Below, in pieces: positions 8,295 through 25,193 of a stretch of DNA of 64,000 nucleotides. The DNA lies in the NCBI RefSeq assembly GCF_000169175.1, contig NZ_AAWS01000004.1, forward strand, positions 124,001 to 188,000, read 5' to 3'. The stretch is from Microscilla marina ATCC 23134 (GTDB lineage Bacteria > Bacteroidota > Bacteroidia > Cytophagales > Microscillaceae). Each line of letters opens with the position of its first letter. Within the stretch, counting starts at the first letter, position 1. The position numbers were made by a program, and so were the translations under genes. The notes beneath the pieces are model-generated. The model was not told the origin of the DNA. It saw only the letters and a list, made by a program, of their open reading frames with translations, and did not search any database.

Positions 8295-8428
8295 GAGTAA
8301 TATAATTAATCGGCGTTGTGGTAGTTAGTAATAGTTTTTGCAAGCAGTTGATTTTTTAGTAAAACAGAAAAAGGTAAAGTGTTCCAAAAGGCGATGTGCT
8401 ATGGAGCAGACGAATTTTATAGTTTTAC

Positions 8429-8634
8429 TTAGGAACATGTTCAAAATACGTGTCGAGATTGAGGGCGTATACTCGAGGCTGGCTGAGGCACTTTTTGCAG
8501 TCGTAGCCATAGCTACGGCGAAAACCGATGGCTGCAGCCCTGCTGCGCCGAGCTCTGCCAAAGGCTAAAAGTAACGAAAATCAGTAAAGAGGATATGTTC
8601 TAAACCGGACAGTTATTGCGATCACGTTCCTTAA
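8429..8634 (+). repeat. Dispersed repeat, family A copy 1 (about 206 bp)
   Basis: Bounded by TTAGGAACATG at the left and CGTTCCTTAA at the right, an imperfect inverted pair. The left ~70 bases and right ~75 bases match family A copy 2 near 51.8 kb with few changes. The middle (about 8498-8570, from GCAGTCGTAGCC to AAAGGC) is absent from copy 2 and instead matches the middle of the family B repeat at 12.5 kb. Open frames here on both strands are by-products of the repeat. Confidence 0.85.
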
Positions 8635-9249
8635 TAATAAGACCAAAGGTAGGTAATTGTACTAATTATTATAAGGCATTGTTTTGCTAAACAAGTGTTG
8701 TGTAAGGAATATAGGGGAAATGCTGCTGTTTATTGGCCGAAAAATGCTCAAGTATAGAATAATCTCTTGTATTGATAATGGTAAAACAAACACCTTCTCT
8801 GGTAATCCCCTGTATCTGTTCATAGCAAATAGATGATTGACTTTAACCTATTCTCTTGTAAAGTCATCAAGACCTGTTTTACCATCAAGCATTGAACAGT
8901 TCAGGTGATGCTGAAGAAGAAACAGATGAACCTTATTTTGAGCAGAGTAAATAGAAGGGTTATGATTGCTTGGATTTGAGTAAGTGGTTTAAAAACAGGT
9001 TGTTATAAAATATTGTATACCTTAAATAACCGAGTTTATCTGAGTGAGAATTGCTTGCCCGATTGATAAACGCTAACATTGCATTGTAAGTAATACAAAT
9101 AGTCTGAAAAATAATTAAGAGTTAAAATTGGTTAGAAAGCTTTGGCAAATAGCTCATAAATATTAACCATAACTTTGGATAGGTAATGTGATAATTATTA
9201 GAATATAGGTAAACTGAGCAAAAACTACATGCCTTATTCAAAGTTTATT
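8635..9249. other. Intergenic stretch without recognised genes
   Basis: AT-rich sequence with no credible coding frame in any direction. A box TAACTTTG at 9170-9177 fits the Bacteroidota -7 promoter consensus and is followed about 75 bases later by the terminator at 9250, so a short untranslated RNA is possible. A TTTG at 9141-9144 is too far upstream (25 bases) for a good -33 element. Confidence 0.3.
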
Positions 9250-9285
9250 AAAAAGCGTAGTCTGTTATAACTACGCTTTTTTTTT
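9250..9285 (+). terminator. Terminator with no assigned gene
   Basis: A perfect 12-bp stem AAAAAGCGTAGT / ACTACGCTTTTT (9250-9261 with 9270-9281), an 8-base loop and a run of T beyond. No coding frame lies immediately upstream on either strand, so it ends an unrecognised transcript. Confidence 0.8.
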
Positions 9286-9375
9286 GTCCAAAAGTATTCC
9301 TTTTATGAATTGATACCGTCCATTGGTGAACAAAAACCACCCTTTAGTAAATTCATCAACTTTATTTTACTTGAA

Positions 9376-9395
9376 ACGTTATACCTTTGTAACGT
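9376..9395 (+). promoter_or_regulatory. Operator-like dyad enclosing a -7 promoter box
   Basis: ACGTTA (9376-9381) and TAACGT (9390-9395) are perfect inverted arms. The eight bases between them are TACCTTTG, an exact TAnnTTTG -7 box. The ATG of the small secreted protein is at 9443. A repressor on this dyad would cover the -7 element; that reading is inferred. Confidence 0.55.
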
Positions 9396-9442
9396 AATAA
9401 AAAAACGTATTTTTTACATTTACTAATAAGGATTGTAATATT

Positions 9443-9769
9443 ATGAAAACACTAAAAATTTTTACTCTTATTGCTTGTGTTGCTGCTTTGGCATCGTTTA
9501 CTATGGCCGATAAAACTCCAGCCAAAGTAGAAAAAAAGGTAGAAACGAATTTTGCTAGCTTTAAGATTGTCAATGATACCGGCATAAAAGTGCGCATTCA
9601 TACAGGATATGGCGTTGTTTCTTTGAACAAACGCGGAGGATCTACTTCTGTGACTTGTCGCCCAGGCAAGAAAGTATATACTGCTCCTCGTGGTAGTAAA
9701 GATAAATTCCTTTTCAAAGTAACTAAAGACATGTGTGGCAAGAGAGTAAAGCTGTCAAAGTATTTATAA
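9443..9769 (+). CDS. Small basic secreted protein of unknown function
   Basis: A 108-residue protein with a clear signal peptide (MKTLKIFTLIACVAALASFTMA, cleavage near residue 22) and a mature part of about 85 residues that is rich in Lys and Arg. It has two cysteines (in SVTCRPG and KDMCGK) that could form one disulfide bond in the periplasm or outside. No domain was recognised. The gene has its own promoter-like dyad and its own terminator, so it is a single-gene unit. The start is fixed by the signal peptide. Confidence 0.75.
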   Translation: MKTLKIFTLIACVAALASFTMADKTPAKVEKKVETNFASFKIVNDTGIKVRIHTGYGVVSLNKRGGSTSVTCRPGKKVYTAPRGSKDKFLFKVTKDMCGKRVKLSKYL

Positions 9770-9792
9770 GCCAGCAAATCAAAATTTTACAC

Positions 9793-9826
9793 AAAGGAGA
9801 ATCTTTACGAAGGTTCTCCTTTTTTA
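9793..9826 (+). terminator. Terminator of the small secreted protein gene
   Basis: Stem AAAGGAGAA / TTCTCCTTT (9793-9801 with 9814-9822), a 12-base loop and a T run. A possible promoter for the next gene overlaps its end: TTGG at 9827-9830, 18 bases, then TATCTTTTG at 9849-9857. Confidence 0.85.
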
Positions 9827-9886
9827 TTGGGTTTAGCCAAGTTTTTGCTATCTTTTGCCCATTCATTTACTTGTATAAATTAGTGT

Positions 9887-11824
9887 ATGGCTTTATCTGA
9901 TACTGAAATTGAAAAACGAAAGGCAGTGATTGCAACAACCCAGGATGAAAATCAAAAAGTAACCCGGATAATAGACCTTGCTTTTGATATTTTGTATCAG
10001 AATAAAGTACCGCAAGCCAATGCTTTGTTAGAAGAAGCAGCATTATTGGCCACACAAATAAAATTTAAAGATGGGTTGGGCAGGGTAAGACTAGGGAAGG
10101 CGGCTATTGCTTATTTTACTGCCAACTACGATGACTCAGCCTTGTACTCTGACCAAGCCATTGAGATATTTCAGCAAACCAACAACAAAGAGTTACTAGC
10201 CGAAACTTATACCAACTTGGGGATGTCACACTGGAGCCAGGGTAGCTATAGCAAAGCCTTGGATTATGTTTTTAAAGGCATACATTTATACCAGGAGTCA
10301 GGCAAAAGTGGTCGCTTGGCCTATGCGCTGTATATGCTGGGGAGTTTTTACTTAGACTTGAACGACCCTGATAACGCAGAAAAAAACTTTTTAGCCTCGC
10401 AAAAAGCCCTTGAAATAGGTGACCCTTATTCTGTGTCAAACGCCCGTAGTTGGATTGGTCTGGCAAACGTAGCTTTTCAGCGCGATCAATACACTCAAGC
10501 TTTAGAATGCCTGGACAAAGCCCTTAAATTACAAGAAGAGTCAAACGACCAGTTTGGCATGTCACGTACTTTCAACGATTTTGGTAAAATATATCGCAAA
10601 CTCAACGATATAGACCAAGCCTACCTTTTTTATGGCAAAAGCCTGAATATTCGCCTACAGGCCACCGACAAACAAGCATTGATTACGACCTACCTCGATT
10701 TGGGAGAGTTTAATTTTGAGCAGCAAGAATATGCGCTTGCGGTTAATTACTTGCAAAATGGACTTAAATGGGCGGAAAAACTGCGGGCCAAGGTGAAAAT
10801 GTACCGAGCGCACCTCTTATTGAGCCAAATTTATGATGTGTTGGAGGAGTATGACAAAGCTTATCACCACCTAAAACAACACAATGAAATCAAGGATAGT
10901 GTAATGGGTAAGGATGCCAATCTGAAAATAAGGAACCTGGAAAGCCAGTTTGCCAAGGAACGCTCAGAAAAAGAAGCAGAAATTTATCGCCTGAAAAATG
11001 TAGAGCTTAAACAGTTGTATGATGAGATCGAGCATAAAAACCAAGCAATTACTGATAGCATTGAATATGCCCGGCGTATTCAGAATGCGATGTTACCTTT
11101 GCACTCCGATTTTTTGACTTACCAGGAATACGCTTTTATTTTCTACAAACCACGCGACATAGTATCAGGCGACTTTTATTGGTTTACCAGCATACCTCAC
11201 CCTGATAATGCCAGTCTGGAATTGATATTTATTGCGGCGGTAGATTGTACCGGACACGGGGTTCCAGGAGCGTTTATGAGCATGATTGGTCATAACTTGC
11301 TCAACAACGTGGTAAAGCAACGTAAAATATATGCTCCTGAAAACATATTGACTAGTTTGCATTTAGGGGTAAAAAAGGCGCTTAAACAAGACCAAAACGA
11401 TAACCAGGATGGAATGGACCTGGCTTTGGTAGTCATAGATGAGCTGGAAGAGTGTATTCATTTTGCGGGTGCCAACAATCCTTTGGTATATGTGCAAAAC
11501 GGGGAGTTGCATCGGATTAAAGGCAACAAGCAAGGCATAGGTGGCGGAAAACATAGACCTACCAAAAAGTTTGATCGCCATACAGTTAGTTTTAAAGATA
11601 CACCAGGCATGTTCTATATTTTTTCAGATGGTTACCAAGACCAGTTTGGCGGAGCAGACAATAAAAAGTTTATGAAACCCCGCTTTCGCCAATTGTTGTT
11701 CGATATTCACCATTTACCTCTGATAGAGCAACGCCAACAGTTAGTTGATACTTTAGAAGACTGGATGGGCAACGAGCCACAGATAGACGATATACTCGTA
11801 ATGGGGCTAAAACTCGGCTATTGA
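9887..11824 (+). CDS. TPR-repeat protein with SpoIIE/PP2C-type phosphatase domain
   Basis: A 645-residue soluble protein. Residues about 40-335 are tetratricopeptide repeats and about 340-395 a coiled coil. About 395-645 is a SpoIIE-like serine phosphatase domain of the kind that often starts SIEYARRIQNAML. Metal-binding positions are visible: SGDFYWF (D429), DCTGHGVPGAFM (D453), GMDLALVV and FSDGYQDQFGG (D581). Such proteins usually dephosphorylate an anti-sigma-factor antagonist or act in partner-switching regulation. No anti-sigma pair is next to it. There is no signal peptide or membrane helix, unlike the many membrane-bound relatives. The phosphatase call is firm; the pathway is not known. 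Confidence 0.9.
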   Translation: MALSDTEIEKRKAVIATTQDENQKVTRIIDLAFDILYQNKVPQANALLEEAALLATQIKFKDGLGRVRLGKAAIAYFTANYDDSALYSDQAIEIFQQTNNKELLAETYTNLGMSHWSQGSYSKALDYVFKGIHLYQESGKSGRLAYALYMLGSFYLDLNDPDNAEKNFLASQKALEIGDPYSVSNARSWIGLANVAFQRDQYTQALECLDKALKLQEESNDQFGMSRTFNDFGKIYRKLNDIDQAYLFYGKSLNIRLQATDKQALITTYLDLGEFNFEQQEYALAVNYLQNGLKWAEKLRAKVKMYRAHLLLSQIYDVLEEYDKAYHHLKQHNEIKDSVMGKDANLKIRNLESQFAKERSEKEAEIYRLKNVELKQLYDEIEHKNQAITDSIEYARRIQNAMLPLHSDFLTYQEYAFIFYKPRDIVSGDFYWFTSIPHPDNASLELIFIAAVDCTGHGVPGAFMSMIGHNLLNNVVKQRKIYAPENILTSLHLGVKKALKQDQNDNQDGMDLALVVIDELEECIHFAGANNPLVYVQNGELHRIKGNKQGIGGGKHRPTKKFDRHTVSFKDTPGMFYIFSDGYQDQFGGADNKKFMKPRFRQLLFDIHHLPLIEQRQQLVDTLEDWMGNEPQIDDILVMGLKLGY

Positions 11825-12433
11825 ATATGCTGAACCACCAAGTCTAGGTTTGTATTGTGTAGTTGATCTACCATAAATTTGCCTGATACAGTGGCATATA
11901 TCTACCTTTTACCTACCCATGGAATACTCTTTCCTGTTATTTTTCCTGCATTATATAGTTCAAGACTCCGCAGTGATTTTAGTCAAAGTTGTTTGCTGGT
12001 TATCAGTTATTGATGAATTTAAAAACTGTTTAATTGGGTGTTTAGGCGTAAAACCGAAACACTTTTAAAAATAAAGTGTGTACGCAATCTTAATATAAAA
12101 TACTGGTTTACAGTATTTAACAAGGTGAACATTTACTCGAATCAGCTATGGACTTCCATCTACCGATTTTATAAACCCTTAAAAATCAATGTATTATAAA
12201 ACAAGTAGCAGGCTTGCAAACCAGCCTAAAGCTAATAGCTAAAGGCTAATAGCTTTAGGCTGTAGAAGCTATGGACTATTGATAGTTGGTAAGAACATCT
12301 ATTGATTTGAGGAGGTCTATCACCAAGCAAGCATTTCTGTTAAAATACTGTTAAGACCTTAAAATCTCCTGATTCTTCAGAATCTCTACAGATTTGCTGC
12401 TTATTTTTGAGTATAAAAAATCATCGCGGCTTC
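11825..12433. other. Intergenic stretch with a 13-bp inverted repeat
   Basis: No credible gene. Arms CAGCCTAAAGCTA (12222-12234) and TAGCTTTAGGCTG (12250-12262) form a perfect 13-bp hairpin. Its loop itself repeats the GCTAATAGCT unit, so two alternative foldings are possible. The role is unknown. Confidence 0.45.
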
Positions 12434-12643
12434 TAAGGAATGGTGAGAAATTAAATTGCTATTCTTGAGGTAGAGGTTTTGTTTTGAGACGAGGCTGTTT
12501 TTTGCACCCATAGCAACGCTACGGGCAAAAACCGATGGCTACAGCTACGCTGTGCCGAGCTCTGCCAAAGGCTAAAAATAACGAAGTATCAAGGCGAAAA
12601 ATCACCTCTCAGAGTGTAAATTTATTTTTGAACAATTCCTAAG
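12434..12643 (+). repeat. Dispersed repeat, family B copy 1 (about 210 bp)
   Basis: Bounded by TAAGGAATGGTG on the left and ACAATTCCTAAG on the right, an imperfect inverted pair. It matches, on the opposite strand, the copy at 30.6-30.8 kb over both ends. Its centre (12506-12580: CCATAGC, GGGCAAAAACCGATGGCT, GCCGAGCTCTGCCAAAGGC) matches the centre of family A copy 1. Confidence 0.85.
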
Positions 12644-12657
12644 ATTAAAACCATACT

Positions 12658-14022
12658 ATGATACTAAAAATGACAAAACTCACTTTTATCTTTAATACCT
12701 TCTTTCTCATTTTGTTTGCTACTATGTGTCTAAAAGCACAAGTTATCCGAGGAACTTTGACAGATTCCAAAACCAAACAACCTGTAGAGTTTGCAGTATT
12801 GGGTTTGTTTCAGGCAGGTGATACCACACAAACTATAGCGGTGGCAACTACTACCTCAGGCATAGGTGGCAAGTTTGCCTTGAACAACCTCAAGTATGGC
12901 AAGTATGACCTGGTAATAAGTATGGTAGGGTATGACAAAAAAACATTGACAAACCTGGTCGTTAGCGCGGCAGCCCCCAACTTGAACTTAAAGGAGGTAG
13001 ACATGTCTTCGTCGGTGCTCAACCTCGACGAAATAGTGGTAAAAGCCAAGCGAGAGTTTATTCAGGCGGATGAAGAAGGCATTACAGTGAAAGCTGATAA
13101 TAATATTTCACAGCAAGGAGGTTCTGCACTTGATATATTAAGAAATATACCTGGGGTAACTGTAGACAACGATGGTAACATTAGCCTAAGAGGAACCAGC
13201 GCCAATATTTTGATCAATGGGCGAAACTCTGCTTTGACAGGAACCTCGCGTGGTGGTGGGTTAGAGTCGCTACCAGCAAGTGCTATCAAAGATATAAACA
13301 TTAGTACCAACCCCTCTGCCAAATACGATGCAGCAGGAGTAGGCGGGGTAATCAATATCCAACTCAAGAAAGGGGTAAAAACCGGACTAAATGCACTAAT
13401 TACCCTGGGAGCCAGCAATCGTGATCGTTACAATGGTTCGCTTCGTCTCAATCGTCGCACCAGCAAGTTTAACTGGTTTGTATCGTATGATGCCCGCCGC
13501 AATGCTCGCCGGGTATGGTTTGACAATGAAACTGATGACTTTACCCGTTCTGACAGACAGAGTGTGATTATACAAGACCGTGATGGTGATCGGGTAGACA
13601 TTAATCATTCAATAAAGTTTGGCACTGACTGGTTTATCAATGATAAAACTACCTTGAGCGTAGAAGGATTGCTAGGTACACAAACCCAGGATGAACCAGA
13701 GTTTTTAGTCAGTCGGTTTGGTACTGACCGTGCTACGCTCGACAGTACAACCCATACATACAATACCGAAAAAGAAGATAATAAAGTGTTTGAGGGGGCT
13801 TTAATCTTTACTAGGAAGTTTGACAAAAAAGGGCAAAAATTAAGTTTCTCGCTGAGCTCAAACTTTGGTACAGAACTGGAAACCCAAGATGTTACTACCA
13901 ATATATTGCAGCTCAATTCTACCAGTGTAGATTCTACTGCGTTGCAGCGGTCTGCCAATAACAACGCAAATAATATTACCAACATCCAGTTAGACTATAT
14001 ACACCCTATAGGCAAAAAATGA
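12658..14022 (+). CDS. TonB-dependent receptor-like outer membrane protein, N-terminal part (frameshifted)
   Basis: 454 residues. Parts: a signal peptide (to about residue 28, MCLKAQ), a CarboxypepD_reg-like domain (about 30-115), a plug domain (about 125-245; LDILRNIPGVTVDNDGNISLRG is typical), and the first strands of an outer-membrane beta-barrel of the OMP_b-brl_3 kind. The frame ends at TGA (14020-14022) in the middle of a barrel strand. The next frame starts at ATG 14019 and continues the same domain, so the two are one gene interrupted by a single base in a run of six A (14014-14019). With seven A the reading would continue GKK-MKIETGYKA in frame. The full protein would be about 815 residues. 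Possible causes are a sequencing error, phase variation or slippage. Confidence 0.85.
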   Translation: MILKMTKLTFIFNTFFLILFATMCLKAQVIRGTLTDSKTKQPVEFAVLGLFQAGDTTQTIAVATTTSGIGGKFALNNLKYGKYDLVISMVGYDKKTLTNLVVSAAAPNLNLKEVDMSSSVLNLDEIVVKAKREFIQADEEGITVKADNNISQQGGSALDILRNIPGVTVDNDGNISLRGTSANILINGRNSALTGTSRGGGLESLPASAIKDINISTNPSAKYDAAGVGGVINIQLKKGVKTGLNALITLGASNRDRYNGSLRLNRRTSKFNWFVSYDARRNARRVWFDNETDDFTRSDRQSVIIQDRDGDRVDINHSIKFGTDWFINDKTTLSVEGLLGTQTQDEPEFLVSRFGTDRATLDSTTHTYNTEKEDNKVFEGALIFTRKFDKKGQKLSFSLSSNFGTELETQDVTTNILQLNSTSVDSTALQRSANNNANNITNIQLDYIHPIGKK

Positions 14023-15101
14023 AGATTGAGACTGGCTACAAAGCCATTATTCGTGATATGAACCTTGACTTTGACCAAGAGATATACGACGAAACAATTC
14101 AAACGTACGTTTTTTCCGATGAACTGAGTAATGAGTTTAAATACGACGAACAAGTGCATGCGGCGTATGTATTATTTAAAGGAAAACTTAAAAAGAAAAT
14201 AGGATTTAATTTTGGTTTACGAGCCGAGCAAGTATACCTCACGGCAAAGTCTGACAATACACAAAACATTGAAAACAACTATTTTAACCTGTTTCCAAGT
14301 GCACGTATTACTTATAGGGTACGCAAAGGAGAGTTTTTCAAGGTAAGCTATAGCAAGCGTATTCGTCGCCCACGTTTTCGCCTGCTTAACCCATTTCGCG
14401 ATATCTCAAACCCTACTCGTATTCGGGTGGGTAACCCCGAACTAGGACCAGAATTGACTCACTCTGCCGAAATAGGGTACAATAAGGTGTGGAGTAAAAT
14501 AAGCTTGATTCCCAGCTTGTTTTATCGACATACAACGAACGTGATACAACGTTTTGCCTCGTTTGATGCCAACTCTGCCTTGGTGTTTCGTCCGGTAAAC
14601 CTGGGGACTGCCACCGACTATGGTATAGAGTTGATTGTTATTGGTAACTTGGTGAAATGGTGGGATTTTAACGCAAGTTATGCTTTTTTTAATCGGGAGA
14701 TTGACGCTAGAAACAGTGAAACAGACCTCATTACCAGTAATACAAGCTGGAATGCAAAATTGCAATCAAACTGGAAGTTGAGCAAAAACACTACCCTACA
14801 GCTTACTGGAAACTATAGAGCCCCTATTATACGAGCGCAAGGAACACGTCAGGCGTTTCACTCTATTGACTTGGGTTTCCGTCACCGTTTTCTTAAAGGC
14901 AGAGCTACTTTCGGCTTAGTTTTGACCGACATTTTCGATACCCGTCAGTTTGGCTTCGCAACCACCACCACTGAATTTACTTCGTCTGGAATATATAAGC
15001 GTGAAAGCCAGATTTTGAGGGCAAGTTTGACCTACCAGATAGGGAAGAGATTTAAAACCAGTATTAAAAAGGGGCGTGGCAATCGTCGTCGCCGTAGGTA
15101 G
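14019..15101 (+). CDS. TonB-dependent receptor-like outer membrane protein, C-terminal part (frameshifted)
   Basis: 360 residues of outer-membrane beta-barrel in the -1 frame relative to the upstream part, overlapping it by four bases (ATGA). It has no signal peptide, so it could not reach the outer membrane by itself. Typical OMP_b-brl_3 strands are visible (FNFGLRAEQVYL, FPSARITYRV, RRPRFRLLNPF, NPELGPELTHSAEIGY). The last residues are very basic (KKGRGNRRRRR) instead of the usual aromatic C-terminal strand end. That tail may be an extension after the barrel. The ligand is unknown, and no SusD partner follows. Confidence 0.82.
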   Translation: MKIETGYKAIIRDMNLDFDQEIYDETIQTYVFSDELSNEFKYDEQVHAAYVLFKGKLKKKIGFNFGLRAEQVYLTAKSDNTQNIENNYFNLFPSARITYRVRKGEFFKVSYSKRIRRPRFRLLNPFRDISNPTRIRVGNPELGPELTHSAEIGYNKVWSKISLIPSLFYRHTTNVIQRFASFDANSALVFRPVNLGTATDYGIELIVIGNLVKWWDFNASYAFFNREIDARNSETDLITSNTSWNAKLQSNWKLSKNTTLQLTGNYRAPIIRAQGTRQAFHSIDLGFRHRFLKGRATFGLVLTDIFDTRQFGFATTTTEFTSSGIYKRESQILRASLTYQIGKRFKTSIKKGRGNRRRRR

Positions 15102-15170
15102 CCTGTTTCGCCAGCTGTGATATGTTCTTAAACCCAACATAGGGTAGGTGATCATTTACTAAAATATAAG

Positions 15171-15205
15171 ACGTTGTGACTTCGAGTGGCAACGTTTTTT
15201 CTTTT
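15171..15205 (+). terminator. Terminator of the split receptor gene
   Basis: Stem ACGTTG / CAACGT (15171-15176 with 15190-15195) around a GC-containing 13-base loop, followed by TTTTTTCTTTT, about 70 bases after the stop codon. Confidence 0.65.
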
Positions 15206-15384
15206 ACCATAGGATGAGTGTCCTATATTTTTTATTTTACTACGATCAAACCCTTAACTCAAGCAAAAAATTTCGTAGTAGTTATTTTAGCCCTGTTCTT
15301 AATTATAATGGTTCGCTTTTGACTAACCGAGCTCAACAAAGTGATATGCTTTTGATTGGGGATTTATAACTAACATAAAATAAG

Positions 15385-15510
15385 TGTGTTGTATATCTGT
15401 GAATCGAGTCTATTTCTAAATCCGATTCATCGAGGTGGCTTGCTGTGATGAGCTCAGCATAGTTAAACAGGAGGTAGCACCCGGTATTTAAGGACTTGCG
15501 CCTGTCGTTG
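15385..15510 (+). repeat. Dispersed repeat, family C copy 1
   Basis: Blocks shared with the reverse-strand copy at about 28.0-28.17 kb, in the same order: CTGTGAA-CGA near 15398, CTGTGATGAGCTCA followed by AGTTAAACAGG (15442-15471), TTAAGGACTTG (15488-15498) and CCTGTCG (15501-15507). The bases between the blocks differ. It fills most of the 15206-15558 gap ahead of the AraC gene; nothing else was recognised there. Confidence 0.7.
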
Positions 15511-15558
15511 TTCAAGGTATTACCGTTGAGCGTATTACTATCAAACTAATTTTTGTGT

Positions 15559-16560
15559 ATGCAATCCAACTCTTTTTCAGTAGACTCACCTCAAAACTGG
15601 CTTGTCCAGATGGCAGAAATTTTTGAAACCAAAGTAGTGGATAATCAAATTAATATTCCTGAGCACCTGGGGCATGGGTCTATACAAATGCATTGTTTTT
15701 CGGCAGAGCTAAATTTGTCAGTGCAACAAATCTATTTAGACAAACCTCTCCGTATTTCGCGCAAGGCAGCGCCCAGAAAGGATATTTTACCCATTGTATT
15801 TCATTACTCCAAGGCTGGGGTAGACCATATACATCTTGCCGCCGAAGAAAAGAAAACCTTGGGAAGGTTCAGCCCACAAGGGATAATGATTCCTGCCCAC
15901 GAGCAAGACAGTATTGTAGAATTTCCTTCTAATGAAGAAATTATAACTATTGCTGTGGTAGTGAGCCGTCGTTGGATCATTGAATATATGCAAAACATAC
16001 CGGGCAAAGAAGCCGAAAATCTGGTAAGCCTGTTTGCTTGTCAAAAACAGTTTTGTATTTATGAAACGCTTAACCAGGCAATGGAGAAAGCTATAGAAGA
16101 AATTATTCAATGTGACTATGCCGAACCAGTCACGGGTTTGTTCTTGCAAGCAAAAACAATTGAGCTATTGGCGTTATTTTTTGATAAACTGGCACAACGT
16201 GAAACAACTGATGGGTTTTATAACCTGAATCAAACCGATGTCGCGTCCTTGTTTGCAGTAAAGAAAATATTGATGGATAACCTTGAAAACCCGCCAACTA
16301 TTTTGTGGTTATCGCGAGAGGTAGGTATGAGTGAAAGTAAACTCAAAAAAACTTTTAAGCAAGTGTTTGGTCATAGCATATACCAGTATGCTTTGTATAA
16401 TAGAATGGAAAAAGCCAAGGAGTTATTAGAGTCACGTCAATATAACGTATCAGAAGTAGGAGGATTGGTGGGGTATTCTAATCTGGCGCACTTTGCCAGG
16501 GCATTCAAAAAACAATATTCTGTAGCCCCAAAACAATATTTGCAAAAATTTAGGAGATAA
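15559..16560 (+). CDS. AraC-family transcriptional regulator
   Basis: 333 residues from the ATG at 15559; an upstream TTG at 15553 is in frame but less likely. The N-terminal two thirds is a ligand-sensing region of the type common in Bacteroidota AraC proteins, with no enzyme motif. The last ~100 residues hold two helix-turn-helix motifs (LWLSREVGMSESKLKKTFKQ, then VGGLVGYSNLAHFARAFKKQ) and the usual ending SVAPKQYLQ. It is related in layout to the AraC protein at 34.5 kb. No clear operon partner: the split receptor lies upstream and a long repeat region downstream. A target cannot be named. Confidence 0.9.
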   Translation: MQSNSFSVDSPQNWLVQMAEIFETKVVDNQINIPEHLGHGSIQMHCFSAELNLSVQQIYLDKPLRISRKAAPRKDILPIVFHYSKAGVDHIHLAAEEKKTLGRFSPQGIMIPAHEQDSIVEFPSNEEIITIAVVVSRRWIIEYMQNIPGKEAENLVSLFACQKQFCIYETLNQAMEKAIEEIIQCDYAEPVTGLFLQAKTIELLALFFDKLAQRETTDGFYNLNQTDVASLFAVKKILMDNLENPPTILWLSREVGMSESKLKKTFKQVFGHSIYQYALYNRMEKAKELLESRQYNVSEVGGLVGYSNLAHFARAFKKQYSVAPKQYLQKFRR

Positions 16561-17195
16561 GGAATAATAAAAAATTAAATTTTGTTATAAAAAATATAAC
16601 CTTCTTAAATTCTTTCTCGTAATATAAATCAAATACAATTTTATTATTGTCAGATGAATAACTTCTCAAACATACCGCTCATTTCTTTCTACACTCGTAG
16701 TTCTTGGTGCTGGTTATTAACCTACCAAAACTTGTTTGAGTAATACTCTCCTCTTGTAATCAATTCTTTTTAATAATCTTACTACATACTTTCCTTATAC
16801 AGGTCTGGTTCATGTATGCCTATACACAATTGTGCATGCCTGAATTTGAACTCACCTGAATAAACTCAATGCTATCTATATACATTTATACTTATTTGTA
16901 TATATGTAGTCGAGCCTATCAATAAACTTCGATTGATAAGTTTAAATTGAAGCAACACTATAAATGCTGGTTTACCACCTTTATAACGCTTTTGTATTGT
17001 ATGTTTAAAATCAATTGAACTGTTTTTATTGTTCAATTGATAAATATGTCTGCCTGATTAATATCATAATTTAGATTTTCAGATAAATATTTTTGAGAAA
17101 GTGATATGGATACCAAGATAAGTATCAATAATAGTTCGTGAAATATAGTCATTACACGAAACTGAATGCATAATCTATACTCACCCGAAAAATCA
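16561..17195. other. AT-rich intergenic stretch with an 11-bp hairpin
   Basis: No confident gene. The clearest structure is a perfect inverted repeat ATCAATTGAAC / GTTCAATTGAT (17010-17020 with 17031-17041) around a T-rich 10-base loop. It could terminate transcription from either side. Confidence 0.45.
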
Positions 17196-18472
17196 TAAGA
17201 AGTAGGAAATAATTGACTAATTAATAGAAAGTAAACTGTGGTCAAACCAAGGAAAGTAAGTGCCGTGAAAAACCTAACTAAAACCTGAAAATCAAGGAAA
17301 TAAGTGATCAACTAATAGAAAGCAAAATGTGATCAAACTAAGGAAAATAAGTGACAAACTAATTTAAAGTAAAACGATCAAACTGAGGAAAGTAAGTGAT
17401 ATGAAAAACCTAACTAAAACCTGAAAATCAAGGAAATAAGTGATCAACTAACAGAAAGTAAACCGTGATCAAACCAAGGAAAATAAGTGATGTAGAAAAC
17501 CTAACTAAAAAACTAAAAATCAAGGAGATAAGTGACAAACTAATAGAAAGTAAACCGTGATCAAACCAAGGAAAATAAGTGACGTGAAAAACCTAACTAA
17601 AACCTGAGTATCAAGGAAATAAGTGATCAACTAATAGAAAGCAAAATGTGATCAAACTAAGGAAAATAAGTGACAAACTAATTTAAAGTAAATCGTGATC
17701 AAACTGAGGAAAATAAGTGATATGAAAAACCTAAAAATCAAGGAAATAAGTGATCAACTAATAGAAAGCAAAATGTGATCAAACTAAGGAAAATAAGTGA
17801 CAAACTAATTTAAAGTAAACCGTGATCAAACTGAGGAAAATAAGTGATATGAAAAACCTAACTAAAACCTGAAAATCAAGGAAATAAGTGATCAACTAAT
17901 AGAAAGCAAAATGTGATCAAACTAAGGAAAATAAGTGACAAACTAATTTAAAGTAAACCGTGATCAAACTGAGGAAAACAAGTGATATGAAAAACCTAAC
18001 TAAAACCTGAAAACCAAGGAAATAAGTGATCAACTAATAGAAAGTAAAATGTGATCAAACTAAGGAAAATAAGTGACAAACTAATTTAAAGTAAACCGTG
18101 ATCAAACTGAGGAAAACAAGTGATATGAAAAACCTAACTAAAACCTGAAAACCAAGGACATAAGTGATCAACTAATAGAAAGTAAAATGTGATCAAACTA
18201 AGGAAAATAAGTGACATGAAAAACCTAACTAAAACCTGAAAATCAAGGAAATAAGTGTCAAATAAGGAAAATAAGTAACGTGAAAAACCTAACTAAAAAC
18301 CAAGGAAGTAAGTGTCAAGTAATGAAAATAAGTGACAAACTAATTTAAAGTAAAACGATCAAACTGAGGAAAACAAGTGATATGAAAAACCTAATTAAAA
18401 AAATGAACACCAAGGAAGTAAGTGTCAAATAAGGAAAATAGTGATTCAAACACCTAACTAATCAAAATTACC
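17196..18472 (+). repeat. Higher-order tandem repeat array (three unit types, 138-bp period)
   Basis: About 28 head-to-tail units, nearly all ending GGAAAATAAGTGA or a close variant. Unit a (47 bp) begins TCAACTAATAGAAAG, unit b (47 bp) begins CAAACTAATTTAAAG, and unit c (44 bp) begins TATGAAAAACCTAACTAAAA. They repeat in the order a-b-c, giving a 138-bp period, with a units starting at 17308, 17627, 17754, 17892 and 18030; the 17627 period is 127 bp because its c unit lost 11 bp. Both edges are degenerate, while the centre (17754-18167) is nearly uniform, as expected from unequal crossover. Palindromic TGATCA recurs through a and b units. Unlike CRISPR, there are no unique spacers. No long coding frame runs through it. 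Confidence 0.95.
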
Positions 18473-18493
18473 CTAAATAGAATAGTTAACTTT

Positions 18494-18531
18494 ACAACGC
18501 AAGATAAACTTTATCATGCGTTGTTTTTTTT
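18494..18531 (+). terminator. Strong terminator just after the tandem array
   Basis: Arms ACAACGCA-A-GATAAA (18494-18508) and TTTATC-A-TGCGTTGT (18510-18524) pair with one A-A mismatch, followed by eight T. It points to a transcript reading rightward out of the array, although no protein gene precedes it. Confidence 0.85.
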
Positions 18532-18870
18532 GCTTTAGAGGAAAGCTTCAACTATTTAAGGTGCAAAAATCAAGTCAATAAAGATTTACTTCAATTTGCA
18601 TTGTGTTCTGTTTTTATACTTGTCTGAACATTGTGTACTTGGGGCTTTTTTATATATGCAGATATAAGAAATATATACATTGGCAAAAAAAGTAAATTAC
18701 TTAAAAATAGACCACACCACCTTACACCTACCCCTTTTGCCCTATGACACTTGTCTTGTTAACAAGGACAAAACTTACATATACAATAAACTACCCTATA
18801 TCTATTGTGAAGCACTTTGTTTTTTGTAATTTTAGTTAAAAGCAGCAAGCCAGTACGATTCAATGGTTTT

Positions 18871-18933
18871 ATTGTCAGGTAGTTGTGTGCCAAGCAAGGT
18901 AAATACATCATCTTGCAAGGCACCTGATACAAT
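18871..18933 (+). promoter_or_regulatory. Long stem-loop in the leader of the macroglobulin gene
   Basis: GTGCC-AA-GCAAG (18887-18898) pairs with CTTGC-AA-GGCAC (18912-18923), a symmetric stem. Outside it, ATTG-TCAG (18871-18878) can pair with CTGATACAAT (18924-18933) with bulges. The hairpin ends 60 bases before the ATG. CACCTGAT is also repeated directly (18921 and 18938). It resembles an RNA control element but matches no riboswitch I know. The remainder of 18532-18870 is AT-rich with nothing recognised. Confidence 0.5.
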
Positions 18934-18992
18934 GAGACACCTGATGAAATAATGGCTATTTTGCTGTAAAAATCACCTAAACTATTCTCATT

Positions 18993-21900
18993 ATGCATTA
19001 TACGAAAACTATAAGGCGTTTATTCCTGAGTGCCCTGGTCTTGTTGGCGCTTAGCTATTGGCAGGTGCCTGAAGTACATGCCCAAAAAGCTTATAACAGT
19101 CGCTGGGACAAGGTAAACGGATTTTTGAAAAAGAAATTACCCAAATCAGCCCTCAAGGAAGTAGACGGCATTTATACGCAAGCCAAAAAAGACAAAAATT
19201 CAGCACAACTTATCAAAGCCATTGTACATAAATTAAAGTATGTGGTAATGGTAGAAGAAAATGATTTGGTAAAAAGCCTGACCGATTTGCAAACTGAGGT
19301 AAAAAATGCGGAGTTTCCGGTAAAACCCATGTTACACTCTATGTTGGGGCAGGTCTACTGGCAATATTATCGCCGCAACCGTTGGCGTTACAATAACCGT
19401 ACTGCCACTTCCAAAGATTTTGCTCAGGCTGATCTGAACACTTGGGACTTACGAAAAATTACTGAAGAAACGATGCATCAATACAAGCTTTCGCTGAAAG
19501 ATGCTGAGAAGCTTAAAAAAGTGAAAGTAGACATTTACGACGAAATTATTGTAAAAGGTCACACAGAGCAACGCAAACTTCGCCCTACTTTGTATGATTT
19601 TCTTGCCCATCGAGCCATTAACTTTTTCAAAAGCTCGGAACCTAACCTCACCAAGCCTGCCTATCAGTTTACCCTGAACAAACCTGAGTACTTGCAGGAT
19701 GCAGTAGGTTTTGCTAAAATGAAAATAGAGTCACGTGATACTACTTCGTATAAGTATTACGCCTTGACTATTTTGCAAGACTTGATCAAGTTTCACCAAA
19801 ACGACAAAGACTTGTCATCGCTAGTAGATGCCGACCTTGCCCGCTTAAAGTTTGTGTACAACCACTTAAGTACTACCATCAAAAAAGACTTGTATCGTGA
19901 AGCGTTGGAGCGTTTAGAAAAACGCAGCATTAAGTTTCCTATTTCTACGGAAGTGACTTATGCCATTGCCAATATTTATTACCAACAAGGCAGGAGCCAC
20001 AACCCTTTGCGACTGGACAAAAAGAAATGGAAGCTAAAAACAGCCATTGAAATATGCGATAAAGCAATTGCTCGTTTTCCTAAATCGCGGGGGGCTCAAC
20101 AATGTAAAAACCTGAAAATAAGAATATTCAGCAAGAGCGTAAGCTTGCAAACTGAGCGAGTAAATGTACCTGAACAACCTTTTAGGGTAAGTATACAATA
20201 CAAAAACACTGACCAAATGCATTGGCGGGTATATAAGGTAGACTTAGACTGGCTGCAAAAAACTTATCTTGCCTGTAACCCCAAAAGCCACGCTCAAGCT
20301 TGTTTTTTAGAAGCCACCTATCAACTAACCCCTTTGCATAGCTGGAGCACCAAGTTGCCAGATGATAAAGATTACCAAATGCATCGTTTAGAAACCAAGG
20401 TTCCAGCGTTGCCTTTGGGCAATTATATGTTAGTGGCAAGTGTATCGCCTAATTTTGAAACTAAGGGCAATGCAGTGGCAAGTGATTTAGTGACAGTAAG
20501 TAGCTTAAGTTATATCAACCGCAGTCTTCGCTATAAAGGCATTAGTCAGGTATATGTTTTGGATAGAACATCCGGTAAGCCTGTGGCAGGGGTAAAGACT
20601 ACCTTGAAAGTACGTCGTTATGACAACAAAAAACGAGCGTATTTGATAGAAACCGGAGGTGTTTTTACATCAAATAAAGAAGGGTATGTAGAAATACCCT
20701 ATGTTGATAATTACTATAAACGTAATTTTTGGCTGGAGTTTGAAAAAGGCAAAGACTGGCTGTCTACCCTTGACCTGAACTCATACAAATACAAATCGCG
20801 TTATGGCAACTTGTATCGCTATAAATATACCGATAGTAAACGCACCTACACCAAAACTTTTTTCTTTTTAGATCGAAAGATTTACCGCCCAGGGCAAACA
20901 GTTTATTTCAAGGGGTTGGTTTTAAACACAGACGGAGACAAGCATGACATTAAGGCAAACTACAAAACAACAGTAACTTTATATGATGTGAATGGTCAAA
21001 AGGCTGGTAAGCTTAACCTAACCACCAATGAGTTTGGAACATTTAACGGTTCATTTATAGCACCTAATAAAGGCTTGAATGGCAATATGCGCATCAAAGA
21101 TGCACACGGAAGCATTAGTTTTTCGGTAGAAGACTACAAGCGCCCTAAGTTTGAAGTAAGCTTTAAGCCAGTAAAAGGGAGTTTTAAGATAAATGATATG
21201 GTAACGGTTACAGGCAAAGCCAAGGCATATTCGGGAGCTAATATTGACGGGGCTGAGGTAACATACCGCGTGGTGCGTAAAGCGAGTTTTCCAAGATGGT
21301 ACTACTACTATTATGGTTATTCGCCATCTTCGCCTAGTATGCAAATTACCAAAGGAACTGCTACCACCAATGCTCAAGGCGAGTTTGAGGTAAAGTTTAA
21401 GGCTATTCCAGACTTAAGTGTAGGCAAAGAAACAGACCCTACTTTTACTTATTGGGTGTATGCCGATGTAACCGACATGAATGGCGAAACCCATAGCAGT
21501 AGCACTACTGCATCGGTGGGGTATCGTTCGCTCAAAGTAAGTGTATCTGTGGGATCACAGGTAAACCAAAGCAAAAAAGCTGCTTGGAAAATTAATACCA
21601 AAAATCTCAATGGACAGTTTCAGGCAGCCAGTGGTACCATTACTATTCATCAGCTTCGGCAGCCCGAAAGAGTGTTGCGGGTACGTAAATGGGCGCAGCC
21701 TAACAAATTTATACATTCACCCACAGAGTGGGAAAAGTGGTTTCCGAACGACTTGTACCGCAATGAAAACAATCAGTACAAGTGGAAGAAAGAAAAAGAG
21801 GTATGGAACGCAAAATTTGCCACCAAAGAAAAAGACAAAGCCAGCCGTTTGCTGAATATTACCAACATAGCTAAATGGAAACAAGGGGCTTATGTATTGG

Positions 21901-24900
21901 AAATAAAAGCTAAAGACGCGCAAGGTAAAGAGGTAAAATCAGTAAGGTATTTTACAGTCTATAATCCTAAGTCTAAAAGTATACCTACCAACCAGGTGCT
22001 TTATTTCAAAACTGAAAAGACGAAGGCAGAACCCGGCGAAAAAGCCCAAATATTGTTAGGGTCGGCAACTAAAGGAGTGCAGGTATTGTACGAAATAGAG
22101 CACAATAACAAGATTGTGGCAAAGCGGTGGTTAAAACTGAGTAAAAGCCAAAAAATGATAGAGGTACCCGTGAAAGAGGAGTATCGGGGAAACTTTGGTG
22201 TACACTTTACTTTTGTAAAAAACAACCGTTGGTACCATCGTGATGAGACAGTGTATGTACCACGCACCAACAAAGAGCTGGACATTAGTTTTGAAACTTT
22301 CCGAAACAAACTTAAGCCAGGAGAGAAAGAAGAATGGCGGATAAAGATTGCAGGTAAAAAAGGGGATAAAGTAGCCGCTGAAATGGTTGCTACCTTGTAT
22401 GATGCCTCCTTAGATGTTTTCCGTGCCAATGCATTTAGTTTTGGCATTTATAACTCTTATTATGCCCGTATGCGCTGGGACAGCCGTGGGGGATTTGTTA
22501 TCAGTAACTTTAATGTGTATGCACGCGATTGGAATGATCGTACGAAATATGTGAAATCTAAAAATTATGATTACCTCAATTGGTTTGGGTATTCGTATGG
22601 TCGTCGCAAGTATTATGACCGTCACCGTTTTAGAAAAGAAAAAAGTAGTGCAGGCAATACATCGACTCCGACAAAAGTAATGGAGGAAGTGAACGATGTA
22701 GCTGTGCCTAGCCCTAAAATGGCAGTAGCGACCAGGGCAAGCAAGAGTAAAGTTGTAGTAGCGGACAAGCAACAAAGTGTTCCTGTGGTTAAAAAAGCCG
22801 CTGGAGGTAGTGGGGGTAGTCTGGATCAAGTAAAGGCACGGACTAATTTCAACGAAACAGCTTTCTTTTACCCCAGTCTGCGCACCAATGAAAAAGGCGA
22901 AATCATTGTGAAGTTTACAGTGCCTGAGGCGCTTACCAAGTGGAAAATGAGAGGGTTTGCCCATACCAAAGACCTGAAGTATGGCTTTGCCAGCAATGAA
23001 TTGGTGACCCAAAAAGAATTGATGGTGGTACCTAATGCTCCTCGTTTCTTCCGCGAAAGCGATCAAATGACCTTGATGTCTAAAATCTCTAATGTATCGG
23101 AAAAAGATTTGACAGGATCGGCGCAACTGTTTTTGTTTGATGCCATTACTAACAAACCGATTGATAAGCTATTGGGCAACACCAATGCAAAGCTTAACTT
23201 TCAGGCGAAAGCCGAGCAGAGTACGGTGGTAAAGTGGAAACTAAAAATACCTGTGGGTGTGCAAGCAATTACTTATAGAGTGGTGGCAAAAGCAGGTAAA
23301 TTCTCAGATGGAGAAGAAATGACTTTGCCCGTATTGACCAATCGTATGTTGGTGACCGAAACAATGCCTTTGCCTATTCGCAGCAATCAAACCAAAACTT
23401 TTGAGTTGAAAAAACTGATGGCAAGTGGCAAGTCTAAAACCTTGAAGCACCATAAATACACCCTTGAGTTTACTTCTAACCCGGCTTGGTATGCTATTCA
23501 GGCACTGCCTTATTTGATGGAGTTTCCGCACGAATGTGCTGAACAAACCTTTAGTCGTTTTTATGCCAACAGTATTGCGGCACATGTGGCTAATTCAAGC
23601 CCGAAAATCAAGAAAGTGTTTGATACCTGGAAAAATATCCAACCAGATGCTTTGTTGAGTAACCTGGAGAAAAACCAAGAGCTTAAGTCATTGATTTTGA
23701 GTGAAACCCCGTGGGTAATGAACTCAAAGAGCGAGTCGGAGCGCAAACGTCGTTTGGGGGTACTGTTTGACCTGAACCGAATGGCAAATGAGCTGGAAAA
23801 AGCCTTGGCCAAACTTATCAAAAAGCAAAAAAGCGATGGTGCCTGGGCTTGGTTTGATGGAGGTTACCCTGATCGTTATATTACCCAGCACATTGCCACC
23901 GGTATGGGGCATTTAGATAATCTGGGAGTAAAAAAGGTGAGAGAAGACAAAAAAGCCTGGAGAATGACTACCAAGGCTATTCAGTTTTTAGATCGAAAAA
24001 TTTATGATGACCACGAAGAACTGAAGCGTTTGGCACGTAAGGGCTTGTTGAAGCTGAAAGATGATCATTTGGGTTATATGCAAATGCAGTATTTGTATAT
24101 GCGTAGTTTCTTTAAAGATGTAAAACTGAACAAAGATTATCAAAAAGCTTTTGATTACTACTTTGGTCAAGCCAAAAAGTATTGGACCAAAAAGAGTTTA
24201 TATATGCAAGGTATGTTGGCGCTTGGGTTGTTTCGTTACGACGAAAAGCCAGTACCAATGGCTATTGTGAAGTCGCTAAAAGAGCGAGCTTTGCACAACG
24301 ATGAAATGGGCATGTATTGGAAACAAACTGGGGGTTATTACTGGTATCAAGCACCTATTGAGACTCAAGCTTTGATGGTTGAAGTATTTGATGAAGTAGC
24401 AAAAGACCAAAAGGCAGTAGACGATTTGCGTACGTTCTTGCTAAAGTCTAAGCAAACTCAAGACTGGAAAACAACTAGAGCCACTACCGAGGCTTGTTAT
24501 GCTTTATTGTTGCGAGGTAGTAATTGGCTAACCAGCGAAAAGCAGGTAGAAATAACCGTAGGTGGACAAAAGGTAAATCCATTTGATGAAAGTAGTCCTG
24601 CTAAGGTAGAAGCAGGTACTGGCTATTTCAAAAAGTCGTGGAACGCAGACAATATTACCGCTGACATGGGTAAAGTAACTGTGGCTAAAAAAGACAAAGG
24701 CGTTGCCTGGGGTGCGGTTTACTGGCAGTATTTTGAGCAACTAGACAAGATCACAACAGCTAAAACTCCATTAGCATTGAAAAAGCAATTGTTTTTGCAA
24801 AAAATGTCAGATGCCGGACCAGTAATTTCACCGATCAAGGCAAACACTAAGGTAAAAGTAGGTGATTTGATCAAGGTACGCATTGAGCTAAGGGTAGACC

Positions 24901-25193
24901 GATTGATGGAGTATGTGCACATGAAGGATATGCGAGCGGCTGGATTAGAGCCTGTAAACACCATTTCGCGTTATAAGTGGCAAGATGGTTTGGGGTATTA
25001 TGAAAGCACACGCGATGCGGCGACTCATTTCTTTTTTGGGGCATTGCCCAAAGGGGTATATGTGTTTGAGTATGCCTTGAGGGTAAGTCACGCAGGAGAT
25101 TTCTCAAATGGGGTGACTACCATTCAGTGTATGTATGCTCCCGAATTTGCCAGCCACTCAGAAGGAGTACGGGTAAAGTTTGAAGAGAAGTAA
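18993..25193 (+). CDS. Alpha-2-macroglobulin family protein with thioester motif
   Basis: 2066 residues with a signal peptide (about 1-31, ending EVHAQ) and no lipobox, so it is exported but probably not a lipoprotein. Residues about 50-370 form a helical N-terminal region. Macroglobulin MG2-type domains follow (YRPGQTVYFKG near 631), a long disordered stretch with a Gly-rich patch near 1270, the A2M domain (about 1285-1400, FFYPSLRTNEKGEI), and the thioester region ECAEQTFSR. There C1515 and Q1518 would form the internal thioester; an alpha-alpha toroid follows. Such proteins trap proteases by covalent capture. The usual penicillin-binding-protein partner (pbpC) is absent, as is common in Bacteroidota. 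Single-gene unit with a structured leader and a terminator. Confidence 0.92.
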   Translation: MHYTKTIRRLFLSALVLLALSYWQVPEVHAQKAYNSRWDKVNGFLKKKLPKSALKEVDGIYTQAKKDKNSAQLIKAIVHKLKYVVMVEENDLVKSLTDLQTEVKNAEFPVKPMLHSMLGQVYWQYYRRNRWRYNNRTATSKDFAQADLNTWDLRKITEETMHQYKLSLKDAEKLKKVKVDIYDEIIVKGHTEQRKLRPTLYDFLAHRAINFFKSSEPNLTKPAYQFTLNKPEYLQDAVGFAKMKIESRDTTSYKYYALTILQDLIKFHQNDKDLSSLVDADLARLKFVYNHLSTTIKKDLYREALERLEKRSIKFPISTEVTYAIANIYYQQGRSHNPLRLDKKKWKLKTAIEICDKAIARFPKSRGAQQCKNLKIRIFSKSVSLQTERVNVPEQPFRVSIQYKNTDQMHWRVYKVDLDWLQKTYLACNPKSHAQACFLEATYQLTPLHSWSTKLPDDKDYQMHRLETKVPALPLGNYMLVASVSPNFETKGNAVASDLVTVSSLSYINRSLRYKGISQVYVLDRTSGKPVAGVKTTLKVRRYDNKKRAYLIETGGVFTSNKEGYVEIPYVDNYYKRNFWLEFEKGKDWLSTLDLNSYKYKSRYGNLYRYKYTDSKRTYTKTFFFLDRKIYRPGQTVYFKGLVLNTDGDKHDIKANYKTTVTLYDVNGQKAGKLNLTTNEFGTFNGSFIAPNKGLNGNMRIKDAHGSISFSVEDYKRPKFEVSFKPVKGSFKINDMVTVTGKAKAYSGANIDGAEVTYRVVRKASFPRWYYYYYGYSPSSPSMQITKGTATTNAQGEFEVKFKAIPDLSVGKETDPTFTYWVYADVTDMNGETHSSSTTASVGYRSLKVSVSVGSQVNQSKKAAWKINTKNLNGQFQAASGTITIHQLRQPERVLRVRKWAQPNKFIHSPTEWEKWFPNDLYRNENNQYKWKKEKEVWNAKFATKEKDKASRLLNITNIAKWKQGAYVLEIKAKDAQGKEVKSVRYFTVYNPKSKSIPTNQVLYFKTEKTKAEPGEKAQILLGSATKGVQVLYEIEHNNKIVAKRWLKLSKSQKMIEVPVKEEYRGNFGVHFTFVKNNRWYHRDETVYVPRTNKELDISFETFRNKLKPGEKEEWRIKIAGKKGDKVAAEMVATLYDASLDVFRANAFSFGIYNSYYARMRWDSRGGFVISNFNVYARDWNDRTKYVKSKNYDYLNWFGYSYGRRKYYDRHRFRKEKSSAGNTSTPTKVMEEVNDVAVPSPKMAVATRASKSKVVVADKQQSVPVVKKAAGGSGGSLDQVKARTNFNETAFFYPSLRTNEKGEIIVKFTVPEALTKWKMRGFAHTKDLKYGFASNELVTQKELMVVPNAPRFFRESDQMTLMSKISNVSEKDLTGSAQLFLFDAITNKPIDKLLGNTNAKLNFQAKAEQSTVVKWKLKIPVGVQAITYRVVAKAGKFSDGEEMTLPVLTNRMLVTETMPLPIRSNQTKTFELKKLMASGKSKTLKHHKYTLEFTSNPAWYAIQALPYLMEFPHECAEQTFSRFYANSIAAHVANSSPKIKKVFDTWKNIQPDALLSNLEKNQELKSLILSETPWVMNSKSESERKRRLGVLFDLNRMANELEKALAKLIKKQKSDGAWAWFDGGYPDRYITQHIATGMGHLDNLGVKKVREDKKAWRMTTKAIQFLDRKIYDDHEELKRLARKGLLKLKDDHLGYMQMQYLYMRSFFKDVKLNKDYQKAFDYYFGQAKKYWTKKSLYMQGMLALGLFRYDEKPVPMAIVKSLKERALHNDEMGMYWKQTGGYYWYQAPIETQALMVEVFDEVAKDQKAVDDLRTFLLKSKQTQDWKTTRATTEACYALLLRGSNWLTSEKQVEITVGGQKVNPFDESSPAKVEAGTGYFKKSWNADNITADMGKVTVAKKDKGVAWGAVYWQYFEQLDKITTAKTPLALKKQLFLQKMSDAGPVISPIKANTKVKVGDLIKVRIELRVDRLMEYVHMKDMRAAGLEPVNTISRYKWQDGLGYYESTRDAATHFFFGALPKGVYVFEYALRVSHAGDFSNGVTTIQCMYAPEFASHSEGVRVKFEEK

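What the first reader, a model, noticed from the sequence alone, without database searches (positions are those of the whole stretch)
17196..18472. 1.3-kb higher-order tandem array of three related 44-47 bp units
Units a, b and c diverged from one ancestor (common ending GGAAAATAAGTGA) and then were amplified together as a 138-bp a-b-c period: four consecutive periods in 17627-18167 and an older one from 17308. This satellite-like, two-level organisation is rare in bacteria. Both edges are decayed and the centre is homogenised, which implies continuing unequal exchange. Regular TGATCA palindromes about every half period offer repeated protein-binding or Dam sites.
Basis: seen in the sequence. 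Interest (0 to 1): 0.85.

Follow-up and report, generated by a model that had tools for sequence, protein, structure and literature searches.

The report
Nested intergenic minisatellite in Microscilla
A 1.3-kb stretch of non-coding DNA between two genes of a marine bacterium is a real repeat-within-repeat array that has been rebuilt differently in a sister species, and it most likely reflects ordinary repeat turnover rather than a special function.

Summary
The array is real: 27 parsed units of three types (a 47 bp, b 47 or 45 bp, c 44 bp), with a 138-bp a-b-c period run four times at 17627-18167. Units a and b, and the second half of c, derive from one ~22-25-bp element. One locus was found in its 9.77-Mb genome. 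A congener ('Uncultured Microscilla sp.') carries the array at the same place, between an araC-type and an alpha-2-macroglobulin gene, but its centre is a 92-bp a-c period with its own variants, while a shared b variant sits near the edges. So the array predates the species split and turns over in concert. It is not a rarity in this genus: 15 arrays of 150 bp or more without an open frame in 1.2 Mb of this genome and 5 (4 clustered) in 0.4 Mb of the congener, against 1 microsatellite in 0.8 Mb of three other Cytophagales. No evidence for function held up: TGATCA is a by-product of unit junctions, the array folds worse than chance, no promoter was found, and upstream folding is ordinary for this genome. 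Best reading: a complex intergenic minisatellite evolving by slippage or unequal exchange.

The parts
15553..16560 (+). araC-type regulator gene upstream of the array
   Evidence: Pfam HTH_18 E 2.7e-21 and HTH_AraC E 3.7e-12; ortholog G001:C161:17597-18604 at 95% DNA identity
16561..17195 (+). unique intergenic stretch between araC and the array; 573 of 599 aligned bases identical in the congener up to 17160
   Evidence: matched in this genome and the congener, and otherwise only by three stretches of 30-41 bases among 37 genomes (up to 15 candidates scored per genome)
17196..18472 (+). whole array: 27 parsed units of types a (47 bp), b (47 or 45 bp) and c (44 bp)
17214..17626 (+). left, more diverged part, unit order a c a b c a c b c; the 45-bp b variant at 17355-17399 recurs at 18336-18380 and near both edges in the congener, with one base differing among copies
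17627..18167 (+). four consecutive a-b-c periods of 138 bp (one shortened by an 11-bp deletion in c)
   Evidence: (138-bp period, 93% matches), lag identity 0.83 at 138 against 0.57 at 47
18168..18472 (+). right part: an intact a and c, then decayed units; its outer end aligns with the right edge of the congener's array
18494..18532 (+). intrinsic-terminator-like hairpin with T run, just after the array on the + strand, conserved in the congener
   Evidence: 8 + 5 pairs; minimum free energy -16.1 kcal/mol, z -2.66, 5 of 200 shuffles as good, for 18472-18545; conservation; not found by the simple terminator scan
18993..25193 (+). alpha-2-macroglobulin-family gene downstream of the array
   Evidence: Pfam A2M, MG2, A2M_BRD, bMG10; ortholog on G001:C249

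Best explanation
It is a locus-specific, non-coding, nested (higher-order) minisatellite. A ~22-25-bp element was duplicated and diverged into 44-47-bp units a, b and c before the two Microscilla species split (inferred from shared unit types and the shared 45-bp b variant). In each lineage a multi-unit block was then amplified and spread through the centre, a-b-c (138 bp) here and a-c (92 bp) in the congener (shown), while units at the edges exchange less and decay (shown as a pattern). The process is most likely slipped-strand mispairing at replication and/or unequal homologous exchange between sister copies (inferred). The array sits in a roomy spacer after an araC-type gene and before a terminator-like hairpin, where length change is probably tolerated (inferred). 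No selected function is needed.
For: Array and its levels. Same place in the congener with a different homogenised period; species-specific c units (3 of 2000 shuffles) and a units (20 of 2000). Neighbouring periods share a variant (GGAAAACAAG in b at 17939 and 18077, and again in b at 18336, and nowhere else in the array), as copying by block would give. A second array (L077:16418-17003) and its ortholog (L185) show the same pattern: mean unit identity 0.925 and 0.989 within species, 0.858 between, 4 complete units each. Arrays are common in the sampled parts of both genomes. The longest stop-free run in the array is 54 codons.
Against: b units do not separate by species (113 of 2000 shuffles; identity between species 0.930, within this genome 0.923). 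At the second locus the ranges overlap (highest between species 0.927, lowest within this genome 0.875; no shuffle test). Neutrality is not shown: the ~22-bp second half is kept in a, b and c. For the a consensus it differs between species at 2 of 22 positions against 4 of 25 in the first half, too few to decide. Copy number in the congener is unknown because its contigs break inside the array. Slippage and unequal exchange are not told apart.
Confidence: 0.77

Rival explanations
1. A protein-binding array: the ~22-bp element repeated at mostly 22/25/44-bp steps is a set of operator-like sites, perhaps for the adjacent AraC-type regulator (AraC proteins bind direct repeats about 21 bp apart; recalled), acting as a titration or silencing platform.
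For: The second-half element is shared by all three unit types and present in both species; an araC-type gene is adjacent; the second species-comparable array also follows a gene with an AraC-type domain (HTH_18 E 3.3e-18; distance 108 bp).
Against: The 22-bp core is absent elsewhere in the window at 3 mismatches, including upstream of araC and of the downstream gene; of 16 genome-wide hits to its 15-bp core at up to 1 mismatch 12 lie in the array and 4 are scattered single sites. The second array has 125-136-bp units of unrelated sequence. TGATCA and GATC are not enriched in the sampled genome. Only two arrays were checked for an AraC-type neighbour.
Confidence: 0.11
2. A transcribed element: the + strand from araC or from the intergenic stretch through the array makes a long non-coding RNA or 3' UTR with a repeated unstructured tail, ended by the 18494-18532 hairpin.
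For: Terminator-like hairpin after the array, conserved. The stretch 16565-17165 folds better than shuffles (z -3.95), and its species differences break fewer pairs on + than chance (5 against 9.0, P 0.04; pairs kept 10 against 7.3, P 0.13), not on - (11 against 12.2, P 0.37).
Against: Other intergenic stretches of this genome fold as well: 48 sampled of 146 have mean z -1.79, sd 2.04, and 6 of 48 lie below -4.47, the better of the two 400-base pieces of this stretch (the other is -2.53); its - strand folds equally well (z -3.79). None of 147 consensus pairs shows a change on both sides (two sequences only). The array folds worse than shuffles (whole array z +3.1 on + and +3.6 on -; two periods). 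No TTG-N17-23-TAnnTTTG promoter on either strand of 16401-18992 (motif recalled); sigma-70-like sites no more than in shuffles, 14 against 15.7. Rfam: two matches for 15000-20000, both under gathering score and lying at the start of araC.
Confidence: 0.09
3. Assembly artefact: the array is a mis-assembled single or few units.
For: Repeats of this kind are hard to assemble; the congener's assembly breaks inside the array.
Against: Another species' assembly has several units at the same place with its own sequence, and many units in the window differ, which gives anchors. The exact number of near-identical core periods could still be wrong.
Confidence: 0.03

Closest known systems
Wolbachia VNTR-141 and VNTR-105 intergenic loci (PMC3287509; passages and section 11 read)
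   Same: Intergenic tandem arrays with ~100-140-bp periods that hold internal repeats; the authors propose slippage and possibly concerted evolution.
   Different: Wolbachia periods carry hairpins and are 98-99% identical within and between strains; here the units do not fold better than chance, three diverged unit types alternate, and the period itself differs between species.
TAACTGA heptamer arrays of marine Beggiatoaceae, also in some Bacteroidetes (PMC4679880; abstract and passages read)
   Same: Intergenic direct repeats in marine bacteria, many loci in the Beggiatoaceae draft genome.
   Different: Seven-base units, in that genome mostly just before start codons. The array here has 44-47-bp units, no TAACTGA (TAAGTGA 20 times), and lies 521 bp before the next ORF.
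Other arrays of the same genome, e.g. L080:5141-6929 and L077:16418-17003
   Same: Non-coding; alternating unit types (L080) or concerted change between species (L077).
   Different: L080's family is dispersed; the window array was found at one locus only.
Eukaryotic higher-order satellite (e.g. alpha satellite; recalled)
   Same: Monomers diverged, then amplified as multimers; edges more diverged than centre.
   Different: 1.3 kb and one locus; no link to chromosome segregation was seen or tested.

Membership tests
Bacterial intergenic minisatellite / VNTR | Head-to-tail non-coding units of 10-500 bp above chance | tested here: met
Bacterial intergenic minisatellite / VNTR | Copy-number difference between isolates of one species | not testable with these tools
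   one genome per species held; the congener's array is broken by contig ends
Higher-order repeat array | Multimer copies more alike than the monomers inside them | tested here: met
   lag identity 0.83 at 138, 0.58 at 91, 0.57 at 47; TRF 93% matches for period 138 against 69% for period 47
Concertedly evolving array | Units more alike within than between species at one orthologous locus | tested here: met
   met for c and a units, not for b units
CRISPR array | Constant repeats separated by unrelated spacers | tested here: not met
   the array parses into related units with only short skipped stretches; cas genes were not searched for
Plasmid iteron origin | ~20-bp iterons beside a replication-initiator gene | tested here: inconclusive
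   22-25-bp sub-units exist, but the adjacent genes scanned are araC-type, TonB-receptor and alpha-2-macroglobulin genes and no plasmid record matches 16560-18990; genes further off were not scanned for initiators
Dispersed mobile repeat | Copies at other loci of the genome | tested here: not met
   one locus by DNA search (11 of 84 candidates scored), 4 scattered single 15-bp sites by pattern, 0 other loci in 1.26 Mb by blastn
Structured non-coding RNA family (Rfam) | Match above gathering score | tested here: not met
   15000-20000 only

The most novel reading that the evidence does not exclude
Microscilla maintains a genus-wide set of nested intergenic arrays that are actively amplified and homogenised, locus by locus, faster than the flanking genes change, either by an unusual recombination or replication property of these cells or because arrays with a kept core element are selected as protein-binding platforms, perhaps for AraC-type regulators encoded next to them; the window array would be one of the cleanest cases.
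Probability: 0.12. Interest if true: 0.6.

Novelty: new member of a known kind. Interest (0 to 1): 0.33.

Why it matters
It gives a clear two-species view of higher-order repeat formation in a bacterium: the same locus amplified as a-b-c in one species and as a-c in the other, with a shared variant near the edges. The wider point is that this genus looks unusually rich in such arrays, which could make it a bacterial model for satellite-like turnover. The single array has no shown effect on the cell.

Tried and rejected
Coding: the longest stop-free run in any frame of the array is 54 codons; one 92-codon ORF on - (17033-17311) reaches 116 bases into the left edge and was not pursued. Bent DNA: the AA signal peaks at 11.45 bp, half of the ~23-bp sub-unit, not at 10.5 bp. 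Structured RNA in the array: folds worse than shuffles on both strands. A special structured RNA upstream: first looked promising but is ordinary against 48 sampled of 146 candidate intergenic stretches. Unusual conservation upstream: 95.7% is above fourfold sites of four neighbouring genes (75-86%), but two other nearby spacers reach 95.0 and 97.6% while three lie at 84.6-90.7%, so it is not special. Dam or palindrome role. Gene-orientation preference of arrays: of 16 arrays 12 had both neighbours called, 9 co-directional, 1 convergent, 2 divergent, against 157, 47 and 65 of 269 spacers of 300 bp or more; no clear preference. The weak match in G034 lies in a stretch that looks like ribosomal-protein genes (my reading, no scan) and is taken as chance. 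Two viral contigs each hold one exact match to a degenerate 20-base pattern, taken as chance and not read. Plasmid and phage records: no match for 16560-18990. Papers: eight searches; no listed title or abstract start describes this array; only PMC3287509 and PMC4679880 were opened, in part.

Rows dropped and limits. The unit comparison used 23 of 27 parsed units of this genome (left out: those at 17214, 18279, 18381 and 18430) and 10 of 14 of the congener (left out: those at L022 325, 372, 493 and 542), because they are mosaic or decayed. The genome sample is 60 stretches of 20 kb (1.2 of 9.77 Mb), mostly adjoining, on ten contigs, not drawn at random. In 'non-coding' means that no frame is open across the array; 2 of the 15 loci overlap an ORF of 100 aa or more. 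4 of the congener's 5 arrays lie within about 14 kb of one contig (C6), so its density is a rough figure. Controls were 20, 10 and 10 stretches of three other genomes, the congener's sample 20 stretches. The DNA searches score only part of their first-look candidates (11 of 84 in this genome; 40 of 71).

Full report
What is there. TRF reports a 138-bp period at 17528-18216 (5.1 copies, 93% matches) and weaker 91- and 47-bp periods. A parse into the three unit types gives -acabcacbcabcabcabcabcac-cbc-c, 27 units. Four a-b-c periods run from 17627 to 18167; one c there has lost 11 bp. The identity of the stretch 17528-18216 with itself is 0.83 at lag 138 but 0.57 at lag 47, so the trimer is the amplified unit. 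Below this lies a further level: a and b each split into halves of 25 and 22 bp that resemble each other (z 3.7 for a, 3.4 for b), and the second half of c resembles the second halves of a and b (z 5.4 and 5.2), while the first half of c resembles none of the other five halves (z between -1.6 and 0.2).

Corrections to the description. Unit c ends one A short of the stated common ending. The period from 17308 is not plainly older: its a and c equal the core consensus. TGATCA falls at 25/47/66-bp steps, three per full period.

Where it lies. Upstream is an araC-type gene (15553-16560), downstream an alpha-2-macroglobulin-family gene (18993-25193), both on +. A terminator-like hairpin follows the array at 18494-18532. 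One locus was found in the genome: one match by DNA search over 9.77 Mb (11 of 84 first-look candidates scored), and of 16 hits to the 15-bp core with up to one mismatch 12 are in the array and 4 are scattered single sites.

The sister species. Of 37 genomes searched, 3 gave matches: this genome, one congener (G001) and one weak match taken as chance. Contigs of the same lengths as the congener's bear the title 'Uncultured Microscilla sp.'; that the window itself is Microscilla is inferred from this kinship, and no name was given for it. The congener has the same flanking genes (araC 95.0% and the first 3 kb of the downstream gene 92.8% identical). Its contig C161 ends and C249 begins inside the array. 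Its centre repeats c-a in a 92-bp period with its own fixed changes, while a 45-bp b variant is found near both its edges and, with one base differing, at 17355 and 18336 in the window. Mean unit identities within this genome, within G001 and between them: c 0.868, 0.991, 0.818; a 0.964, 0.986, 0.883; b 0.923, 1.000, 0.930. Label shuffles reaching the observed contrast: 3, 20 and 113 of 2000. So c and a evolve in concert and b does not show it. The units left out are listed under Tried and rejected.

Not alone. TRF on 1.2 Mb of this genome outside the window found 15 array loci of 150 bp or more with no frame open across them, 12.5 per Mb; the congener had 5 in 0.4 Mb, 4 of them clustered on one contig; three other Cytophagales had 0 in 0.4 Mb, 0 in 0.2 Mb, and 1 (a 7-bp microsatellite) in 0.2 Mb. 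One of these, at L080:5141-6929, mixes 117-119-bp and 163-173-bp units. A search with it and its flanks gave 127 matches in this genome and 32 in the congener; these counts include the locus itself and at least 7 listed matches in each genome to flanking sequence. Another, at L077:16418-17003, has an ortholog in the congener with a concerted pattern (0.925 and 0.989 within, 0.858 between, with overlapping ranges) and likewise follows an AraC-type gene. Of 16 arrays compared by blastn with the 1.26-Mb sample, 4, the window's among them, had no other locus there. Arrays of this kind are thus a feature of this genus in the parts sampled rather than of this locus alone.

Function. Nothing tested points clearly to one. 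The array folds worse than shuffled sequence (z +3.1 and +3.6), no Bacteroidetes-type promoter was found by pattern, and TGATCA is a by-product of unit junctions with no enrichment outside the array. The upstream spacer folds well, and its species differences lean towards keeping + strand pairs (5 broken, 9.0 expected, P 0.04), but spacers of this genome commonly fold as well, so I give this little weight. The kept second-half element, and the AraC-type gene beside both arrays that were compared between species, are the best arguments for a binding role; the differences are too few and the arrays too few to test it.

Conclusion. A complex intergenic minisatellite with three levels, older than the species split, amplified differently in each species. 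Wolbachia VNTR-141 is a published precedent for an intergenic period of about this size with internal repeats, and its authors propose the same kinds of process (section 11). New here, as far as the eight paper searches show, are the particular array, the two-species record of different higher-order periods at one locus, and the sign that the genus is rich in such arrays.

Noticed in passing
L080:5141-6929 (G000:C3, about 125100-126930): A 1.8-kb array of mixed 117-119- and 163-173-bp units; related sequence recurs at many places in both Microscilla genomes, often in regular steps that suggest further arrays (its 127 and 32 matches include the locus itself and flanking sequence).
   Followed up: partly
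L157:4090-4647 and 8749-9491 (G001:C6): Arrays of 32-bp units, the second followed by an array with a 91-bp period, among genes of which three scanned are histidine-kinase-like; a search with 8200-10000, flanks included, gave 84 and 119 matches on both strands in the two genomes.
   Followed up: partly
L077:16418-17003 and L185:1900-2600: A second array after an AraC-type gene; a unit from each species folds into a strong hairpin (-22.3 and -22.9 kcal/mol), and the units differ by fixed changes between the two species.
   Followed up: partly
window 12658-14022 and 14019-15101: A TonB-receptor-like gene read as two overlapping ORFs (454 and 360 aa; Pfam plug and beta-barrel) where the congener has one ORF of 815 aa: a frameshift or a sequencing error. 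Described only.
   Followed up: no
window 11825-12657: Spacer of 833 bp against 290 bp in the congener; it holds an 18-bp inverted repeat, 94% complementary (12222-12262), that resembles words in the dispersed arrays by eye.
   Followed up: partly
G000 sample (1.26 Mb): GATC occurs at 0.78 of expectation.
   Followed up: no
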